DNA of 5,541 nt from Candidatus Auribacterota bacterium (GCA_016932965.1 JAFGBW010000177.1:1-5541); one strand, 5' to 3'. Positions 1-5,541 are shown, counted from the first letter of the stretch. Notes: generated by a model not told the origin, from the sequence alone. Made by a program: numbers and translations.

Positions 1-194
1 ATTTTAGTCTCATCTCTGCGACCCTGGGCAGCTGAAGCTTTCGCAACCTCATCGTATGGAACATAGGTTGCCAAACCTTTTTTCGATAAAACCGATGTCA
101 GTGCGCTGGTCAGAGTTGTTTTTCCATGATCCACATGCCCAATCGTGCCTATGTTCACATGAGGCTTTGTACGCTCGAATTTACCCTTTGCCAT
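1..194 (-). CDS. tuf: Elongation factor Tu, N-terminal fragment (cut by window edge)
   Basis: EF-Tu is the GTPase that delivers aminoacyl-tRNA to the ribosomal A site. The 64 complete codons visible begin [20 protein letters not shown] and include the P-loop (G1) motif GHVDHGKT at residues 19-26, which is diagnostic of EF-Tu; the rest of the roughly 400-residue protein lies beyond position 1. The ATG start is supported by an AAGGAG Shine-Dalgarno a few bases upstream and by the standard MAK...FERTKPHVN start of the family. It lies about 30 bp downstream of tRNA-Thr on the same strand, so the two are probably cotranscribed. The switch I (effector) region is unusual: instead of the common IDxAPEExARGITI pattern, residues 47-64 read [18 protein letters not shown] and the next codon starts AT (Ile or Met). 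This resembles what I recall of planctomycete EF-Tu. The family call is secure; the lineage hint is inference. Confidence 0.97.
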
Positions 195-200
195 TGTCCT

Positions 201-206
201 CTCCTT
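201..206 (-). promoter_or_regulatory. Ribosome binding site of tuf
   Basis: On the minus strand AAGGAG is followed by AGGACA and then the ATG of tuf, a near-ideal Shine-Dalgarno at 6 nt spacing. It fixes the tuf start codon and suits a very highly translated gene. Confidence 0.85.
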
Positions 207-224
207 TTCATTTTTTGTCTAACA

Positions 225-298
225 AGCCCGCGAGCGGAATTGAACCGCCGAACCTTTCGCTTACCATGCGAATGCTCTACCTACTGAGCTACACGGGC
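225..298 (-). tRNA. tRNA-Thr (anticodon GGT)
   Basis: The minus strand folds into a full cloverleaf. The acceptor stem is GCCCGTG/CGCGGGC with one T-G wobble, and the discriminator base is T. The D arm is GCTC-AGTAGGTA-GAGC. The anticodon stem is TTCGC/GCGAA with loop ATGGTAA, giving anticodon GGT, which reads ACC/ACT threonine codons. The T arm is GGCGG-TTCAATT-CCGCT. CCA is not encoded (TGTT follows the discriminator), so it must be added after transcription. Two oddities are a 6-nt variable region (AGGTTC, usually 5 or fewer) and A rather than a pyrimidine at position 32. The gene sits just upstream of tuf, as in the classic tRNA-Thr-tufB arrangement of many bacteria. No neighbouring Tyr or Gly tRNA genes are present between it and the promoter. 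Confidence 0.95.
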
Positions 299-413: not shown

Positions 414-1931
414 TTAACCGCCTGAATCAGGCAGGCTGATATCCATTTTAAAACCTTTGTCGATTTTGGAAAAAATAACAATCAAATTCGCTTCTTTCTC
501 CGTTCTAACAGCAGATTTATCTGAGAGTTCTTTCCCCTCTTTCAGGGATTGAATCACTTCCAGAAAATAAGGATAATTCATCTGAAAACGCAGGAATGAA
601 TCCGATGCAGGAGGCGAAATCAAATCCTGAGTAGCAATAATGGGCCTTATATTATCTCCCAGACAACCGACAATGGCTCCAGCCTCTTCCTGAAAAGTAA
701 AATGGATTTCCGGCTCTTTTTTTAGAAATATTCTTACAGCCTGAACCATGAGAAAAGGCCAGCCAGCAGAAGCCTGATTTTGTTTAGGGATGATCCTCAT
801 TCTGACCGTCTTTATGGAATCAGCGGACACAACCGCCTCACAACGAAAAGGAGTGTTATAAAACAAACGTTTCATCCTGTCTTTGAACTCAGCCAGACTG
901 ATTCTTCTTTTTTCTCTTGAAATCGCAATCGTGGCTTGAACATCTCCCAGCTCAGAAATAGAGGCCGCACTTTTAAAAAAAAGGGTTGATGACGGGAGAG
1001 TGTCTTTTCCTCCGAAAATTCTTGCTGTTGATGTGCGAAGCAACCTGGCTTCCTCAGAGGTGATCGCGTACAGCTGGAACATCCGGTCAATGTATTGACG
1101 TAAAAATAGGGACATCCTCATCGGATTCAACACTCCTGCAATGGAAGAAAAAGGTTTCTCAGCAAGAAACAACTGTTGGGAAGAAGGGGAAGGACCCGGA
1201 ATCACACTCAGAAACGGACTGCCTTCCTTAAAGGTAAAACGAAAAGAAAAAGTCTGATTATTTTCTTCTGTTTGAAGGGAAGCATGAAAAATAACGACAG
1301 AGAGGGAATCTATGACCCATAACAGGCCTTCTAAAAATTGATTGAATTGTCTTTGCAGGGCAGGAACTTCTGAAAAAGATAACGTAAAAAAAGCCATGCC
1401 TTTCAATAAATAGATCATCTGACGGTATTCATTCCAGATATGTTCCACATGTATTTTAGCGAATAGTCCTGTTCCCGACCGGGAAGGGATATCCCTTTGG
1501 ATCTCTTGAAGAAGAGTCTCAGCGTCTGCCAAGGCTTTTTGAGATTCACTGAAGGCGCATATACCGCCCGGCATTTTCTTTCCCAGTAAGGGAGGAGAAA
1601 CAGAGGAAAGCATGGAAGAAGGATCAATCGATGGCACAAAAACGATTCTGTCCGGTTTATTCCACAGGGATGGCTGCTGAGTCATTGCAGTCACCCAAAC
1701 CGCGTATAAGGGTTTTGTCCTGTCCAGAGCGGTCCAGGCATGCCCCAAAGAAGCGGTCATTTGTAGTTCCCACCATGCCCTCCATGACGGTCCCATGGAA
1801 GGGCCGGCCATTTTACCGATGTGATTTTCAAATTCTTCAAAAGAAGAGACTTTAACCGCAATCAATATGGCTGAATGAGACGGCATAAGAAAGCCGAAAT
1901 ACATCATGATAATAAATAAAATCGTTCTCAT
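414..1931 (-). CDS. Secreted protein of unknown function (about 505 aa)
   Basis: I do not recognise a named family. The protein starts with a clear signal peptide: Arg at position 2, a hydrophobic core ILFIIMMYFGFLM, and a likely signal peptidase I site after SHSA (about residue 21), so it is probably exported to the periplasm or outer surface. The rest lacks a convincing transmembrane helix. It is rich in alternating polar/hydrophobic segments (for example QTFSFRFTFKEGSPFLSVI) that suggest beta sheet, with two more hydrophobic, probably helical stretches near residues 170-220. The layout, a beta strand, a short 'SSFEEFENHIGK' helix, then a segment ending in D-R-x-K-P before a hydrophobic strand, resembles large uncharacterised secreted proteins (DUF3352-like) that I associate with planctomycetes; this is inference. 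I see no catalytic motif. ATG at 1931 has AGGA 9 nt upstream; an in-frame TTG at 1937 with AGGAG 11 nt upstream is an alternative adding two residues. It is transcribed divergently from the SPFH operon and towards tRNA-Thr-tuf. Confidence 0.85.
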   Translation of the reverse strand: MRTILFIIMMYFGFLMPSHSAILIAVKVSSFEEFENHIGKMAGPSMGPSWRAWWELQMTASLGHAWTALDRTKPLYAVWVTAMTQQPSLWNKPDRIVFVPSIDPSSMLSSVSPPLLGKKMPGGICAFSESQKALADAETLLQEIQRDIPSRSGTGLFAKIHVEHIWNEYRQMIYLLKGMAFFTLSFSEVPALQRQFNQFLEGLLWVIDSLSVVIFHASLQTEENNQTFSFRFTFKEGSPFLSVIPGPSPSSQQLFLAEKPFSSIAGVLNPMRMSLFLRQYIDRMFQLYAITSEEARLLRTSTARIFGGKDTLPSSTLFFKSAASISELGDVQATIAISREKRRISLAEFKDRMKRLFYNTPFRCEAVVSADSIKTVRMRIIPKQNQASAGWPFLMVQAVRIFLKKEPEIHFTFQEEAGAIVGCLGDNIRPIIATQDLISPPASDSFLRFQMNYPYFLEVIQSLKEGKELSDKSAVRTEKEANLIVIFSKIDKGFKMDISLPDSGG

Positions 1932-2051
1932 CCTCAATGATCCTGGTGCTCCTGTCTGATTACAGATAAGATTTAAACCATGAATTTAACGAATTGACAC
2001 GAAGAAAATGTTGAGATTGACTAAAGACATAAAAACTGTCATGTTATTTTT

Positions 2052-2090: not shown

Positions 2091-3617
2091 ATGATCTTTT
2101 TAAAAAAACAATCCGGGGAAGAAAATAAGAAACTTTTTTTCCTTGCCCATGCCGGATGGATAGCGGCCGGTATCCTGATCTTTTTTCTTCCCTATTGGAT
2201 ATGGTTCTTCTGGCGAATCGAACCCAAAGCAGGAGAAATTGCTGTTCTCATCCGGAAAACAGGAGAACCCTTGCCTTCAGGAAAAATCCTGGCTACAGAA
2301 ATCCATGAAAAAGGCATTCAGATGGATGTGCTCCCTGAAGGTCGATATTTTTACAATCCCTATACCTGGGACTGGCAAATAAAAAAGATTACGGACATTC
2401 CGGCAGGCAAGCTGGGGGTGCAGATCCGTCTTTTCGGAAAAGATCTCCCTGAGGGAAAAATCATTGCCGGAAATGATGAAAAAGGAATTTTAAAGGAAGT
2501 CCTGATGCCAGGCCGGTACCGGATCAACCCTTATGCCTATGAAATCCGCCTGTTCAATGCTATTTCGGTGCCCCTGGGATCTGTCGGGGTACTGACCCAG
2601 TTGACCGGCAAGGACATCTTGACCGGTCCTGTGCCGGACAACATCAATACCTATCTGGTTGGACCAGAAGAAAAAGGGGTCCAGACAACGGTATACCCGC
2701 CCGGGACTTATTACCTCAATCCTTATCTTTACATGATCACAATCGTGAACCTAAAAAGTCAGCGTTTTGAAATGAGTAAGGAAGACTCCATTAATTTTTT
2801 GTCTCAAGATGGTTTTACAATCACAGTGGAAGGGACACTTGAATGGGCAGTGAAACAGGACTCCGCTCCGCTCATTACTACTGAGGTCGGAGACCTGGAT
2901 GACGTGCTGAATAAAATCATTCTTCCCGCTGCCAGGGGATTTTCCAGGATTGAAGGGTCAAAAAAGCCTGCCATTGACTACATCATGGGTGAAACCCGGC
3001 AGGAGTTTCAGGACAAGCTCGCGAAACATTTGACTGACCTTTGCGGAAAACGGGGAATTGAAATCCGGTCGGTTCTGATCCGTAATATCATTCCTCCTCA
3101 GAAGATTGCGGGGATCATCAGACAAAGACAAATCGCTGTCCAGAACCGCAGAAAATATGAACAGCAGATTGCTGAAGCTCAATCCAGGGCGGAACTCGCA
3201 AAACAGGAAGAATTAGCTAATCAGAACCGGGAAAAAATTGAGCAGGAAACCATTAAAATCCGGGCTGTCATCAATGCACAGCAACAGCAGTCCGTTGCCC
3301 TGACAGAAGCCAATAAAAATCTGGAAGTGGCCAAATTGCATAATGAAGCCGCTGATTTTCAGGCTAAAGCCAAAGTGGCTCTGGGAGAAGCCCAAAGAGA
3401 TGTGATCAAGATGAAAATGGAAGCAGAAGCAAATGCCCTCCAGCAAAAAGCACAATCTTTCAAGGATGGTTCCAACTGGGCGCGATATGTTTTTTATCAA
3501 ACCATTGCAAAAAAAATCATGCGCATTTTCACGGATGATCAGGGCGCCATCGGAAATATTTTCAATCAATTCACTTCGCCTCATGCTTCCTCTTCTCAGA
3601 AAGGGGGGACCCAATGA
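2091..3617 (+). CDS. Membrane-anchored SPFH (band 7) protein A with three tandem N-terminal repeats
   Basis: This 508-aa protein belongs to the SPFH/prohibitin/flotillin superfamily, whose members build large membrane-associated oligomers. Visible order: a Lys-rich N-tail (KK at 5-6 and 13-14); one transmembrane helix at about 17-41; three tandem repeats at about 47-100, 104-158 and 161-219, each with a G-x-(I/L/V)-(A/G)-V start, an EKGI/EKGV turn and an (E/P)G-x-Y-x-x-NPY end; an SPFH domain at about 225-350 (DGFTITVEGTLEWAV, NKIILPAARGFSRI, KRGIEIRSVLIRNIIPP); an Ala/Gln/Glu/Lys-rich coiled coil at about 345-455; and a hydrophobic C-terminal stretch near 461-495 (YVFYQTIAKKIMRIFTDD). Positive charge before the helix predicts N-in topology with the bulk outside the cytoplasm, as for HflK/HflC. 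Its stop overlaps the start of the paralogue (ATGA), implying translational coupling and probably a shared complex. I do not assign hflK or a flotillin symbol, because the triple repeat is not part of those proteins. The superfamily call is firm; the role is unknown. Confidence 0.9.
   Translation: MIFLKKQSGEENKKLFFLAHAGWIAAGILIFFLPYWIWFFWRIEPKAGEIAVLIRKTGEPLPSGKILATEIHEKGIQMDVLPEGRYFYNPYTWDWQIKKITDIPAGKLGVQIRLFGKDLPEGKIIAGNDEKGILKEVLMPGRYRINPYAYEIRLFNAISVPLGSVGVLTQLTGKDILTGPVPDNINTYLVGPEEKGVQTTVYPPGTYYLNPYLYMITIVNLKSQRFEMSKEDSINFLSQDGFTITVEGTLEWAVKQDSAPLITTEVGDLDDVLNKIILPAARGFSRIEGSKKPAIDYIMGETRQEFQDKLAKHLTDLCGKRGIEIRSVLIRNIIPPQKIAGIIRQRQIAVQNRRKYEQQIAEAQSRAELAKQEELANQNREKIEQETIKIRAVINAQQQQSVALTEANKNLEVAKLHNEAADFQAKAKVALGEAQRDVIKMKMEAEANALQQKAQSFKDGSNWARYVFYQTIAKKIMRIFTDDQGAIGNIFNQFTSPHASSSQKGGTQ
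2229..2747 (+). repeat. Three tandem protein repeats (about 55 aa each) in SPFH protein A
   Basis: The three units cover residues 47-100, 104-158 and 161-219. They share a pattern: an opening beta strand (EIAVLIRKTG, KLGVQIRLFG, SVGVLTQLTG), then a lysine/glycine turn, then EKGI/EKGI/EKGV, then a strand ending EGRYFYNPY, PGRYRINPY and PGTYYLNPY. The third unit is a few residues longer in its middle. The repeat looks like a multiplied version of the beta-hairpin that opens many SPFH domains. Similarity is visible at protein level only, so the duplications are old. Confidence 0.85.
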
Positions 3618-5368
3618 AAATACCCTCTTTTAGAAACATCCTTCTCACTGTATTGGCTTTGATTGCAACCGATGGAATATGGTCATGGGGTTTCTGCAGA
3701 TTCTATGTTCCTCCGGATCGCATGGCTATCATCACAGCCAAAACCGGTGATGCTCTTCCGGCAGGAGAAATTCTGGCAGAAAAAGGCCAAAAGGGAGTCT
3801 GGAAAGAAGTGCTGGGCGAGGGCCGTTATTTTTTCAATCCCATCCTGTATGAAAAGGAAATCAGACCGCTTATCCGGATTGATATCGGAAAAGTGGGAAT
3901 CGTAACATCAAAAGTCGGCCAAAATCTGCCTCCTGGAGAATTTCTGGCGGAAAAGGGACAAAAAGGGATTCAAAAAGCAGTTTTAGGCCCCGGTAAATAC
4001 AGAATCAATCCATACGGCTACGAAGTGCACTTCTTCGATGCATTGCAAATACCAATCGGATACGTCGGGGTTGTGACTTCCCTTTCAGGAAAAGAAACCC
4101 AAGAAGGCTTGTTCGCCAAACCAGGAGAAAAAGGCGTGCTTTCCAATGTTCTTCAGCCCGGACTGTATTATATCAATCCCAGGCAATACATGGTGAATAT
4201 ACTGGAAGTGGGAACCAATCAGATTTCTCTTATAGGCAAGACGGATACCATGCAGATGAAAGACGAAGAATTTGACGTGCTCAGGACAAAAAAGACCGAT
4301 AACATCGCCCGCAATATGGTGGTCCAATCCCATGTAATTGAACAGCAGCTCGAAAAATCCGATGAAAAGAAAAAAAATTATAACCTCTCGATTCAAAAAG
4401 CAAGGGATCAGGCCGTTATGCCGATGAGACAACACATGCAGCAAGGTTCCCAGCAGACAGTCCAGGCTGAATACCTTCCGGAAAAAGAACTCTCGTCAGC
4501 ACCTTCTTTATCATCCAACATCATCCAGTTTATCGAGTTTCCTTCCAAGGACGGGTTCAACATCTGCCTGGACATGACCGTGGAGTTTGAATTCATGCCG
4601 AAAAACAGCGCTTTTATTTACAAGGAATTCGGCGACTTGTTCCAGGTTGTGGAAAAAATCATTCTGCCTCAAATCCTTTCCATTTCAAGGTTAAAAGGCT
4701 CTGCATACGGAGCCAGGGATTTCATTGTCGGAGAAGGCAGGGAAAAATTCCAGGATGATCTAGTCCTGAAACTGAAGGAAACCCTTTCCCCCAAAGGAAT
4801 AGAAATCCGTTCTGCTCTTATCCGCCATGTGATTGTGCCGGATGACATTTGCAGTCCCATTCAGGAAGCCTCCATCGCCATAGAACAGAACCTGACCAAT
4901 ATCGAAAAACAGGAAACCGCAAAAAAGCTGGCGGAATTGAATACCGAGCTCAGTCTCATTTCCCAGCGCAGGGAACAGGTCCAGCAGGAAACCCAAAAGA
5001 TCAAAGCTGAAATCAAGGCCAATGAGGAAAAAGACGTGGCTGAAATTCAGGCTGCTACTCTTAAAAAAGCGGCTGAAATTGAGAACCAGACAGCCCTGGT
5101 CCAGGCTGAACGAACCCGTAAAATCGCCAAAGCGGAAAGCGAGGTTATCAGGATGAAAGGAGTCGCAGAAGCTGAAGGTTTCAGACTGAAGGTCCAGGCT
5201 CTGGGCGACCCCCAATCCTATTCTTTGCTTGAATTTGCCCAGAACCTGCCGCCGAATCTGAAACTGACCATCGCTCACACAGGACAGGGAACCTTATGGA
5301 CTGATCTGGAAAAATCCCTGTCCGGTCAGCTGGCCGGGTTAAAAATTTTAGAAAAAGAAGGAAAATAA
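3614..5368 (+). CDS. Membrane-anchored SPFH (band 7) protein B, paralogue of A with an extra insert
   Basis: This 584-aa protein has the same plan as A: a short N-tail with Lys/Arg; a transmembrane helix at about 8-27; three repeats at about 33-88, 90-144 and 147-198 (ending EGRYFFNP, PGKYRINPYGY and PGLYYINPRQY); an SPFH domain at about 305-425; a coiled coil at about 420-530 rich in Ala/Glu/Lys/Gln; and a C-terminal segment, LPPNLKLTIAHTG, reminiscent of flotillin-type C-ends. Between repeat 3 and the SPFH domain (about 205-305) it carries a polar, Gln/Met/Lys-rich insert that A lacks. Paralogy is clear in matched segments, such as KIILPQILSISRLKG against KIILPAARGFSRIEG and GIEIRSALIRHVIVP against GIEIRSVLIRNIIPP. 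The ATG overlaps the stop of A as ATGA, with a G-rich AAAGGGGGGA Shine-Dalgarno inside the end of A. This arrangement suggests coupled, near-stoichiometric synthesis and a hetero-oligomer, in analogy with HflK-HflC. The exact function is not known. Confidence 0.9.
   Translation: MKIPSFRNILLTVLALIATDGIWSWGFCRFYVPPDRMAIITAKTGDALPAGEILAEKGQKGVWKEVLGEGRYFFNPILYEKEIRPLIRIDIGKVGIVTSKVGQNLPPGEFLAEKGQKGIQKAVLGPGKYRINPYGYEVHFFDALQIPIGYVGVVTSLSGKETQEGLFAKPGEKGVLSNVLQPGLYYINPRQYMVNILEVGTNQISLIGKTDTMQMKDEEFDVLRTKKTDNIARNMVVQSHVIEQQLEKSDEKKKNYNLSIQKARDQAVMPMRQHMQQGSQQTVQAEYLPEKELSSAPSLSSNIIQFIEFPSKDGFNICLDMTVEFEFMPKNSAFIYKEFGDLFQVVEKIILPQILSISRLKGSAYGARDFIVGEGREKFQDDLVLKLKETLSPKGIEIRSALIRHVIVPDDICSPIQEASIAIEQNLTNIEKQETAKKLAELNTELSLISQRREQVQQETQKIKAEIKANEEKDVAEIQAATLKKAAEIENQTALVQAERTRKIAKAESEVIRMKGVAEAEGFRLKVQALGDPQSYSLLEFAQNLPPNLKLTIAHTGQGTLWTDLEKSLSGQLAGLKILEKEGK
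3710..4207 (+). repeat. Three tandem protein repeats (about 55 aa each) in SPFH protein B
   Basis: The units cover residues 33-88, 90-144 and 147-198. Units 1 and 2 share almost the same core (LPAGEILAEKGQKGVWKEVL and LPPGEFLAEKGQKGIQKAVL), so they are more alike than any pair in protein A. Unit 3 (GYVGVVTSLSGK, GEKGVLSNVL, PGLYYINP) is closest to unit 3 of protein A in position and sequence. The set of three therefore predates the A/B duplication, and units 1 and 2 of B may have been partly homogenised. Confidence 0.85.
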
Positions 5369-5395: not shown

Positions 5396-5541
5396 ATGAT
5401 GATTACGATGCTGGATGAAAAAAGATGGAAAGATCTGAAAGCCCGCCTGGCAAGATCAAAATTCAGGAGCCGTTTCAGACTCAGGGAAAAAGAGTCCGTT
5501 TATCTTCATTCAAAGGGAATGCCAGTCATCCAGGAGCATGC
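5396..5541 (+). CDS. DUF4186 family protein, N-terminal fragment (cut by window edge)
   Basis: The 48 complete codons visible read MMITMLDEKRWKDLKARLAR, continuing SKFRSRFRLREKESVYLHSK and GMPVIQEH. The S-x-FR-S-R-F-x-L motif followed by a Y...KG...I..HA pattern matches my memory of the start of DUF4186 proteins, small cytoplasmic bacterial proteins (roughly 120 aa) of unknown function. Their conserved Cys/His-containing C-terminal half would lie beyond the window. The reading frame opens 27 bp after the stop of SPFH protein B and happens to be in the same frame. No strong Shine-Dalgarno is visible, and ATGs at 5396, 5399 and 5408 are all possible starts. It is probably at the end of the SPFH transcript, since no terminator separates them, but a functional tie is not implied. 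Confidence 0.7.
   Translation, partial: MMITMLDEKRWKDLKARLARSKFRSRFRLREKESVYLHSKGMPVIQEH

What the first reader, a model, noticed from the sequence alone, without database searches (positions are those of the whole stretch)
2091..5368. Pair of coupled SPFH paralogues with a vault-like architecture: tandem repeats, SPFH shoulder, helical cap
Both proteins show three tandem beta-type repeats of about 55 aa, then an SPFH domain, then a long coiled coil. Known structures of the eukaryotic major vault protein have the same order: tandem N-terminal repeats forming the barrel wall, an SPFH-fold shoulder, and a cap helix. HflK/HflC show that SPFH pairs can form closed membrane cages. The sequence shows the repeats and the ATGA coupling directly. 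That the two proteins form a hetero-oligomeric, membrane-anchored, short-walled cage or barrel is inference. Unlike vault protein, each has an N-terminal membrane helix.
Basis: partly seen in the sequence, partly recalled or inferred. Interest (0 to 1): 0.6.

Follow-up and report, generated by a model that had tools for sequence, protein, structure and literature searches.

The report
Bacterial membrane-anchored vault-like protein pair
Two neighbouring, translationally coupled bacterial genes, kept together across at least seven phyla, encode membrane-anchored relatives of the proteins that build membrane cages; each carries extra wall segments folded like those of the giant eukaryotic vault particle, so the pair probably builds a tall, vault-like cage on the membrane whose contents and job are unknown.

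Summary
Gene A (2091-3617, 508 aa) and gene B (3614-5368, 584 aa) overlap by ATGA. Each encodes a membrane helix, three ~57-aa beta repeats, an SPFH domain and a long helix. One correction: the third repeat is the SPFH domain's own N-terminal subdomain (SPFH1), so there are two extra SPFH1 copies. B also has a ~100-aa low-confidence insert between SPFH1 and SPFH2.

AlphaFold models of both proteins have the major vault protein (MVP) as Foldseek's top PDB hit. A's three repeats plus SPFH superpose on MVP residues 323-683 (266 residues, 5.0 A). At sequence level neither protein is an MVP: no Vault or shoulder profile match, and only a marginal repeat signal. The repeats resemble SPFH1 of HflC more.

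The pair is conserved: 79 of 80 loci in seven named phyla hold A then B (the exception is a contig end), 62 with the 4-bp overlap. A and B form separate clades with parallel histories. No third gene is conserved. The host genome also has HflK and HflC, so this is not its HflKC.

Best reading: a hetero-oligomeric, membrane-anchored SPFH cage with a vault-like wall, bridging classical SPFH domes and the vault. Oligomerisation, sidedness and cargo are inferred.

The parts
2091..3617 (+). Gene A, 508-aa SPFH protein with N-terminal membrane helix; Shine-Dalgarno-like GAGAGG upstream
2121..2210 (+). A: N-terminal membrane helix (aa 11-40)
   Evidence: AlphaFold2 helix 11-40; hydropathy 2.2 over 19 residues
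2223..2399 (+). A repeat 1 (aa 45-103), vault/SPFH1-type beta repeat
   Evidence: repeat profile 78.7 bits
2400..2570 (+). A repeat 2 (aa 104-160)
   Evidence: repeat profile 81.0 bits
2571..2759 (+). A repeat 3 (aa 161-223) = SPFH1 subdomain of the SPFH domain
   Evidence: repeat profile 60.1 bits; superposes with SPFH1 of prohibitin, erlin and HflC from model residue ~156
2760..3098 (+). A: SPFH2 (shoulder) domain (aa 224-336)
   Evidence: Band_7 match aa 195-364; stomatin SPFH domain Z 12.6, 109 residues, 2.3 A
3099..3533 (+). A: long C-terminal helical region (aa 337-481)
3614..3617 (+). ATGA stop/start overlap, preceded by AAGGGGGG Shine-Dalgarno-like sequence
   Evidence: 4-bp overlap in 62 of 79 relatives and 1-bp overlap in 7
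3614..5368 (+). Gene B, 584-aa SPFH paralogue
3623..3694 (+). B: N-terminal membrane helix (aa 4-27)
3710..3880 (+). B repeat 1 (aa 33-89)
   Evidence: repeat profile 80.1 bits
3881..4051 (+). B repeat 2 (aa 90-146)
   Evidence: repeat profile 91.9 bits
4052..4222 (+). B repeat 3 (aa 147-203) = SPFH1 subdomain
   Evidence: repeat profile 67.5 bits
4223..4531 (+). B: ~100-aa low-confidence insert between SPFH1 and SPFH2 (aa 204-306)
   Evidence: pLDDT mostly 30-58; almost absent from the L022 relative
4532..4840 (+). B: SPFH2 (shoulder) domain (aa 307-409)
   Evidence: Band_7
4841..5242 (+). B: long C-terminal helix (aa 410-543)
5276..5317 (+). B: invariant C-terminal motif (H)xGxGTLWTD (aa 555-568)
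   Evidence: invariant columns G557, G559, T560-D564 in 59 B proteins and in 7 divergent ones

Best explanation
A and B are paralogous SPFH proteins that are made together from one coupled operon and assemble, probably alternating, into a ring on the cytoplasmic membrane. An N-terminal helix anchors each chain. Above it stand two additional SPFH1-type beta modules, then the canonical SPFH1-SPFH2 unit, and the long helices close the top as a cap. The result would be a half-cage like HflK/HflC or prohibitin but with a taller, vault-like wall (three beta tiers; classical SPFH proteins have one and MVP has nine), enclosing a membrane patch. Its likely job is to segregate a set of membrane proteins or lipids, for protection or quality control. 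Shown here: the domain order, the repeat fold (predicted) and its match to MVP, the gene coupling, the conserved pairing and the parallel histories. Inferred: ring and cage assembly, A-B alternation, sidedness (weak lean to the periplasm by analogy with HflK/C) and function.
For: Both AlphaFold models (pLDDT 83 for A, 77 for B; repeats mostly 82-98) put MVP first in Foldseek. A residues 42-372 superpose on MVP 323-683 over 266 residues at 5.0 A. The SPFH1-SPFH2-helix part matches prohibitin, erlin, HflK/C, stomatin and flotillin cages with Z 11-17, all known to form rings (PMC12624060, PMC13100048). Strict A-then-B pairing in 79 of 80 loci, overlap coupling in 69 of 79, separate A and B clades that group the same distant organisms together, and A-B distance correlation 0.956 against a permutation maximum of 0.255 fit obligate partners such as HflK/HflC or PHB1/PHB2.
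Against: No multimer was modelled. Rmsd over the full length is large because the long helices point differently, and pTM is only 0.60 and 0.51. Middling Z values can arise from common arrangements (tool note). The positive-inside rule does not settle topology: A leans N-in, B leans the other way. No conserved neighbour points to a cargo or a protease partner. The distance correlation would also arise from simple co-inheritance.
Confidence: 0.65

Rival explanations
1. The pair is an HflK/HflC-type regulator of the FtsH protease with a longer stalk: the cage wraps FtsH hexamers and limits their access to membrane substrates.
For: Two coupled SPFH paralogues with an N-terminal helix, as in HflKC; HflC is the best sequence match among solved structures (E 0.0002) and HflK the best NCBIfam match of A (E 1e-5). 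FtsH-family proteins are found in 42 of 44 genomes of the phylum.
Against: The host genome has separate HflK matches over the curated cut-off (291 and 254 bits), each next to a weaker match to the same profile that looks like HflC. A scores 25 bits against the HflK cut-off of 159. FtsH is near-universal, so its presence says little, and no gene family recurs consistently next to the pair.
Confidence: 0.25
2. A flotillin-like microdomain scaffold: A and B cluster in the membrane and organise lipids, with the repeats as a spacer or lipid-binding module rather than a closed wall.
For: Single-gene relatives with three or four such repeats are annotated 'flotillin family protein' in Rhizobium and SPFH proteins elsewhere. 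Flotillin and stomatin folds match.
Against: Flotillin-type prokaryotic SPFH genes usually sit in an operon with an NfeD partner (PMC2636767); no partner gene is conserved here. The NCBIfam FloT model scores 16.6 bits against a cut-off of 700 and only on the coiled coil.
Confidence: 0.2
3. A true bacterial branch of the major vault protein that gained a membrane helix and lost repeats, or the ancestor of MVP.
For: Same domain order and fold, with one-to-one superposition of three repeats plus shoulder on the MVP segment R7-R9 plus shoulder (repeat names by established MVP numbering).
Against: No Vault or MVP-shoulder Pfam match among the families listed for 55 A and 59 B proteins at E up to 10. 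The repeat profile finds nothing in human MVP, and profile comparison is marginal (18.6 against a null maximum of 18.3; 10.8 against 14.2 for an MVP-repeat profile), whereas HflC SPFH1 clears its null (22.4 against 17.3). Independent multiplication of SPFH1 explains it equally well.
Confidence: 0.15

Closest known systems
Major vault protein (MVP), eukaryotic vault particle
   Same: Tandem three-stranded beta repeats, then SPFH shoulder, then long cap helix; top Foldseek hit for both proteins
   Different: Three repeats, not nine; N-terminal membrane helix; two paralogues; no detectable Vault-family sequence match; MVP is soluble and closes two half-cages at its N-termini (PMC13100048)
HflK/HflC (SPFH3) membrane cage
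   Same: Coupled pair of SPFH paralogues, each with an N-terminal membrane helix; SPFH1-SPFH2-helix fold
   Different: One SPFH1 module only; the host genome has its own HflK/HflC-type genes
Prohibitin PHB1/PHB2 and erlin 1/2 cages
   Same: Highest Z scores for the SPFH1-SPFH2-helix part (14-17); hetero-oligomeric, membrane-anchored
   Different: Single SPFH1; eukaryotic organelles
Multi-repeat single-gene SPFH proteins ('flotillin family protein') of Rhizobium, Paraburkholderia, Streptomyces, phages
   Same: N-terminal hydrophobic stretch, three or four of the same repeats, SPFH domain
   Different: One gene, longer repeats with insertions, mostly about 21-29% identity; outside the A/B clades
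SPFH11a/b of the 2009 survey of prokaryotic SPFH proteins (PMC2636767)
   Same: Two SPFH subgroups always adjacent in one operon, seen in Chloroflexi, Acidobacteria, Planctomycetes and Deltaproteobacteria
   Different: SPFH11b is said to lack the coiled coil, which B has; member sequences could not be checked here

Membership tests
SPFH / Band 7 superfamily | Band_7 profile match over curated cut-off | tested here: met
   92.8 and 60.0 bits against 23.6; all 55 A and 59 B relatives match
SPFH / Band 7 superfamily | SPFH1-SPFH2 fold followed by a long helix, membrane anchor upstream | tested here: met
SPFH / Band 7 superfamily | Assembly into a ring or cage | not testable with these tools
   no multimer prediction on hand
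Major vault protein | Vault repeat / MVP shoulder sequence profiles | tested here: not met
   no such match listed at E up to 10 for 55 A or 59 B proteins; repeat profile finds nothing in human MVP
Major vault protein | Tandem beta repeats plus SPFH shoulder of MVP fold and arrangement | tested here: met
   4hl8 Z 10.9, 266 residues, 5.0 A, model 42-372 to MVP 323-683; 3gf5 repeats Z 9.4, 151 residues, 4.2 A
Major vault protein | Nine repeats and no transmembrane anchor | tested here: not met
   three repeats and an N-terminal membrane helix
HflK / HflC | HflK equivalog model over cut-off | tested here: not met
   A 25 bits against 159.4; no HflK hit for B
Flotillin (FloT) | FloT equivalog model over cut-off | tested here: not met
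   B 16.6 bits against 700; A none
SPFH11a/b | Sequence membership in the 2009 subfamily | not tested
   sequence lists are in a supplement that could not be read

The most novel reading that the evidence does not exclude
A and B form a membrane-anchored 'one-third-height vault': a hetero-oligomeric cage whose wall tiers are homologous to the MVP repeats, making this operon, and the wider bacterial multi-repeat SPFH proteins, the living intermediate from which the eukaryotic vault arose.
Probability: 0.2. Interest if true: 0.8.

Novelty: new variant of a known kind. Interest (0 to 1): 0.55.

Why it matters
[quoted passage not shown] Here is a widespread bacterial operon in which membrane-anchored SPFH proteins carry tandem modules of that fold. 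It offers a small bacterial system for asking how repeat number sets cage height, how vault walls evolved and what SPFH cages hold.

Tried and rejected
Search of IMG/VR with the A profile found no relative, though phage records do hold distant multi-repeat SPFH proteins. A Vault-family search of 59 genomes rang nowhere, controls included, so it says nothing about absence. Neighbourhood analysis of 80 loci found no conserved third gene; the most frequent family occurred in 6 loci, an ABC transporter by its sequence. The positive-inside rule failed to settle sidedness. The idea that A/B replaces HflKC was rejected for this genome because HflK-type genes are present; in the phylum the pattern is mixed. 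A Foldseek search of viral models returned ordinary SPFH proteins and nothing that changed the reading.

Full report
OBSERVATION. The window holds two long co-oriented reading frames, A (2091-3617, 508 aa) and B (3614-5368, 584 aa), overlapping by ATGA, each with a Shine-Dalgarno-like sequence. Both carry a Band_7/SPFH domain. Internal self-alignment of the N-terminal regions scores 202 (A) and 239 (B) against shuffle maxima of 42 and 46. Three repeats of about 57 residues are present in each protein, with 27-47% identity among all six and a shared consensus resembling pxGxvGVvtxxxGxxLPxGxilAxxGqKGIxxxVLxPGxYxxNPyxYxv (read).

ANATOMY. AlphaFold2 models built on 55 A and 59 B sequences have mean pLDDT 83 and 77, with the repeats mostly at 82-98. 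The order is: membrane helix, repeats 1 and 2, repeat 3, SPFH2, long helix. Repeat 3 superposes with the SPFH1 subdomain of prohibitin, erlin and HflC (alignments start at model residue ~156 in A and ~142 in B). So the extra elements are two additional SPFH1-type modules between anchor and SPFH domain. B carries a low-confidence insert between SPFH1 and SPFH2 (aa ~204-306) that is almost missing in the L022 relative, and an invariant C-terminal GTLWTD motif.

STRUCTURAL KIN. For both models the top Foldseek match in the PDB is the major vault protein (E 4e-11 and 2e-10). VIA-align places A residues 42-372 on MVP 323-683, 266 residues at 5.0 A (4hl8, Z 10.9). The repeats alone match the crystal structure of MVP R1-R7 (3gf5, 151 residues, 4.2 A, Z 9.4). 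By the established MVP numbering (own knowledge), 323-683 spans repeats R7-R9, the shoulder and the start of the cap helix. Prohibitin, erlin, HflK/C and stomatin mostly score higher Z (11-17) but over the single-SPFH1 part. Long-range rmsd values are large because the helices point in different directions.

SEQUENCE KIN. No member of either family matches Vault or MVP-shoulder profiles among the families listed at E up to 10. The repeat profile against human MVP (a sequence recalled and then confirmed identical to PDB 11dr chain A) is marginal: 18.6 against a null maximum of 18.3, and 10.8 against 14.2 for a profile of MVP repeats. Against HflC it aligns with the SPFH1 region and clears its null, 22.4 against 17.3. 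Profile searches of the PDB return HflC first for both families, with erlin, prohibitin and (for B) QmcA and flotillin further down. So the repeats are SPFH1-type by sequence and MVP-like by predicted fold and arrangement. Common descent with MVP is not shown.

CONSERVATION AS A PAIR. The single scan of 84,980 species genomes gave 160 relatives, of which the best 80 were fetched. Their named phyla are Verrucomicrobiota, Kiritimatiellota, Lentisphaerota, Planctomycetota, Pseudomonadota, Thermodesulfobacteriota and Fidelibacterota. These are names in record titles of mostly metagenome bins, so outliers (for example the single Fidelibacterota record) may be binning or naming errors. In 79 of 80 loci A is followed by B; the exception, L049, ends soon after A. 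The 4-bp overlap occurs in 62 of 79 and a 1-bp overlap in 7. In a tree of 58 proteins B forms one well-supported group (98) and A one group with weaker support (65). Distant organisms group the same way in both: Desulfobacterales inside Kiritimatiellales, and Contendobacter near a Verrucomicrobia/Kiritimatiellota pair. That pattern suggests transfer of the pair as a unit. A and B distances correlate at 0.956. No third gene family is conserved nearby.

WIDER FAMILY. Single-gene relatives with four such repeats exist in Rhizobium, Paraburkholderia, Streptomyces, a 642-kb uncultured phage and genome G047; Vibrio phages have three. Annotations call them flotillin family, SPFH or hypothetical proteins. 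Multi-repeat SPFH proteins are therefore a broad bacterial and phage class, and the A/B operon is its paired form.

FUNCTION. Rings and domes are the rule among solved SPFH assemblies, several of them hetero-oligomers (PMC12624060, PMC13100048). The obligate coupled pair argues for a hetero-oligomer by analogy with HflK/HflC and PHB1/PHB2. The extra tiers would raise the dome above the membrane. The host genome has two separate HflK matches over the curated cut-off, each beside a weaker HflC-like match, so A/B is not simply its HflKC. Other carriers in the phylum have only sub-threshold HflK matches or none. FtsH-family proteins are near-universal there (42 of 44 genomes) and hence uninformative. 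Sidedness is unresolved. Cargo is unknown; segregation or quality control of membrane proteins is the family-based guess.

LITERATURE. The vault study PMC13100048 calls MVP domains unique to the vault. A 2009 survey defines SPFH11a/b, two subgroups always adjacent in one operon (PMC2636767), but says SPFH11b lacks the coiled coil, and its sequence lists could not be read here; identity with A/B is open. In the open-access library searched I found no description of this pair; subscription journals are mostly not held.

VERDICT. The cage and hetero-oligomer claims are plausible and untested. Membership in the MVP family is not met at sequence level.

Noticed in passing
414-1937 (-): 507-aa protein divergent from A, with a signal-peptide-like start; no Pfam or NCBIfam match.
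   Followed up: partly
3-298 (-): tRNA-Thr(GGT) directly upstream of the truncated EF-Tu gene, an ordinary thrT-tuf arrangement.
   Followed up: no
5396-5541 (+): Start of an ORF running off the contig (MMITMLDEKRWKDLKARLARSKFRSRFRL...), downstream of B.
   Followed up: no
L114:1708-5710: In Streptomyces clavuligerus plasmids a four-repeat SPFH gene follows two TIR-domain genes on the same strand with a short gap; a possible defence-like cluster.
   Followed up: no
L112, L113, L116: Vibrio phages and a 642-kb uncultured phage encode SPFH proteins with three or four of these repeats.
   Followed up: partly
5276-5317 (+): C-terminal GTLWTD motif invariant in B proteins and without assigned function.
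   Followed up: no
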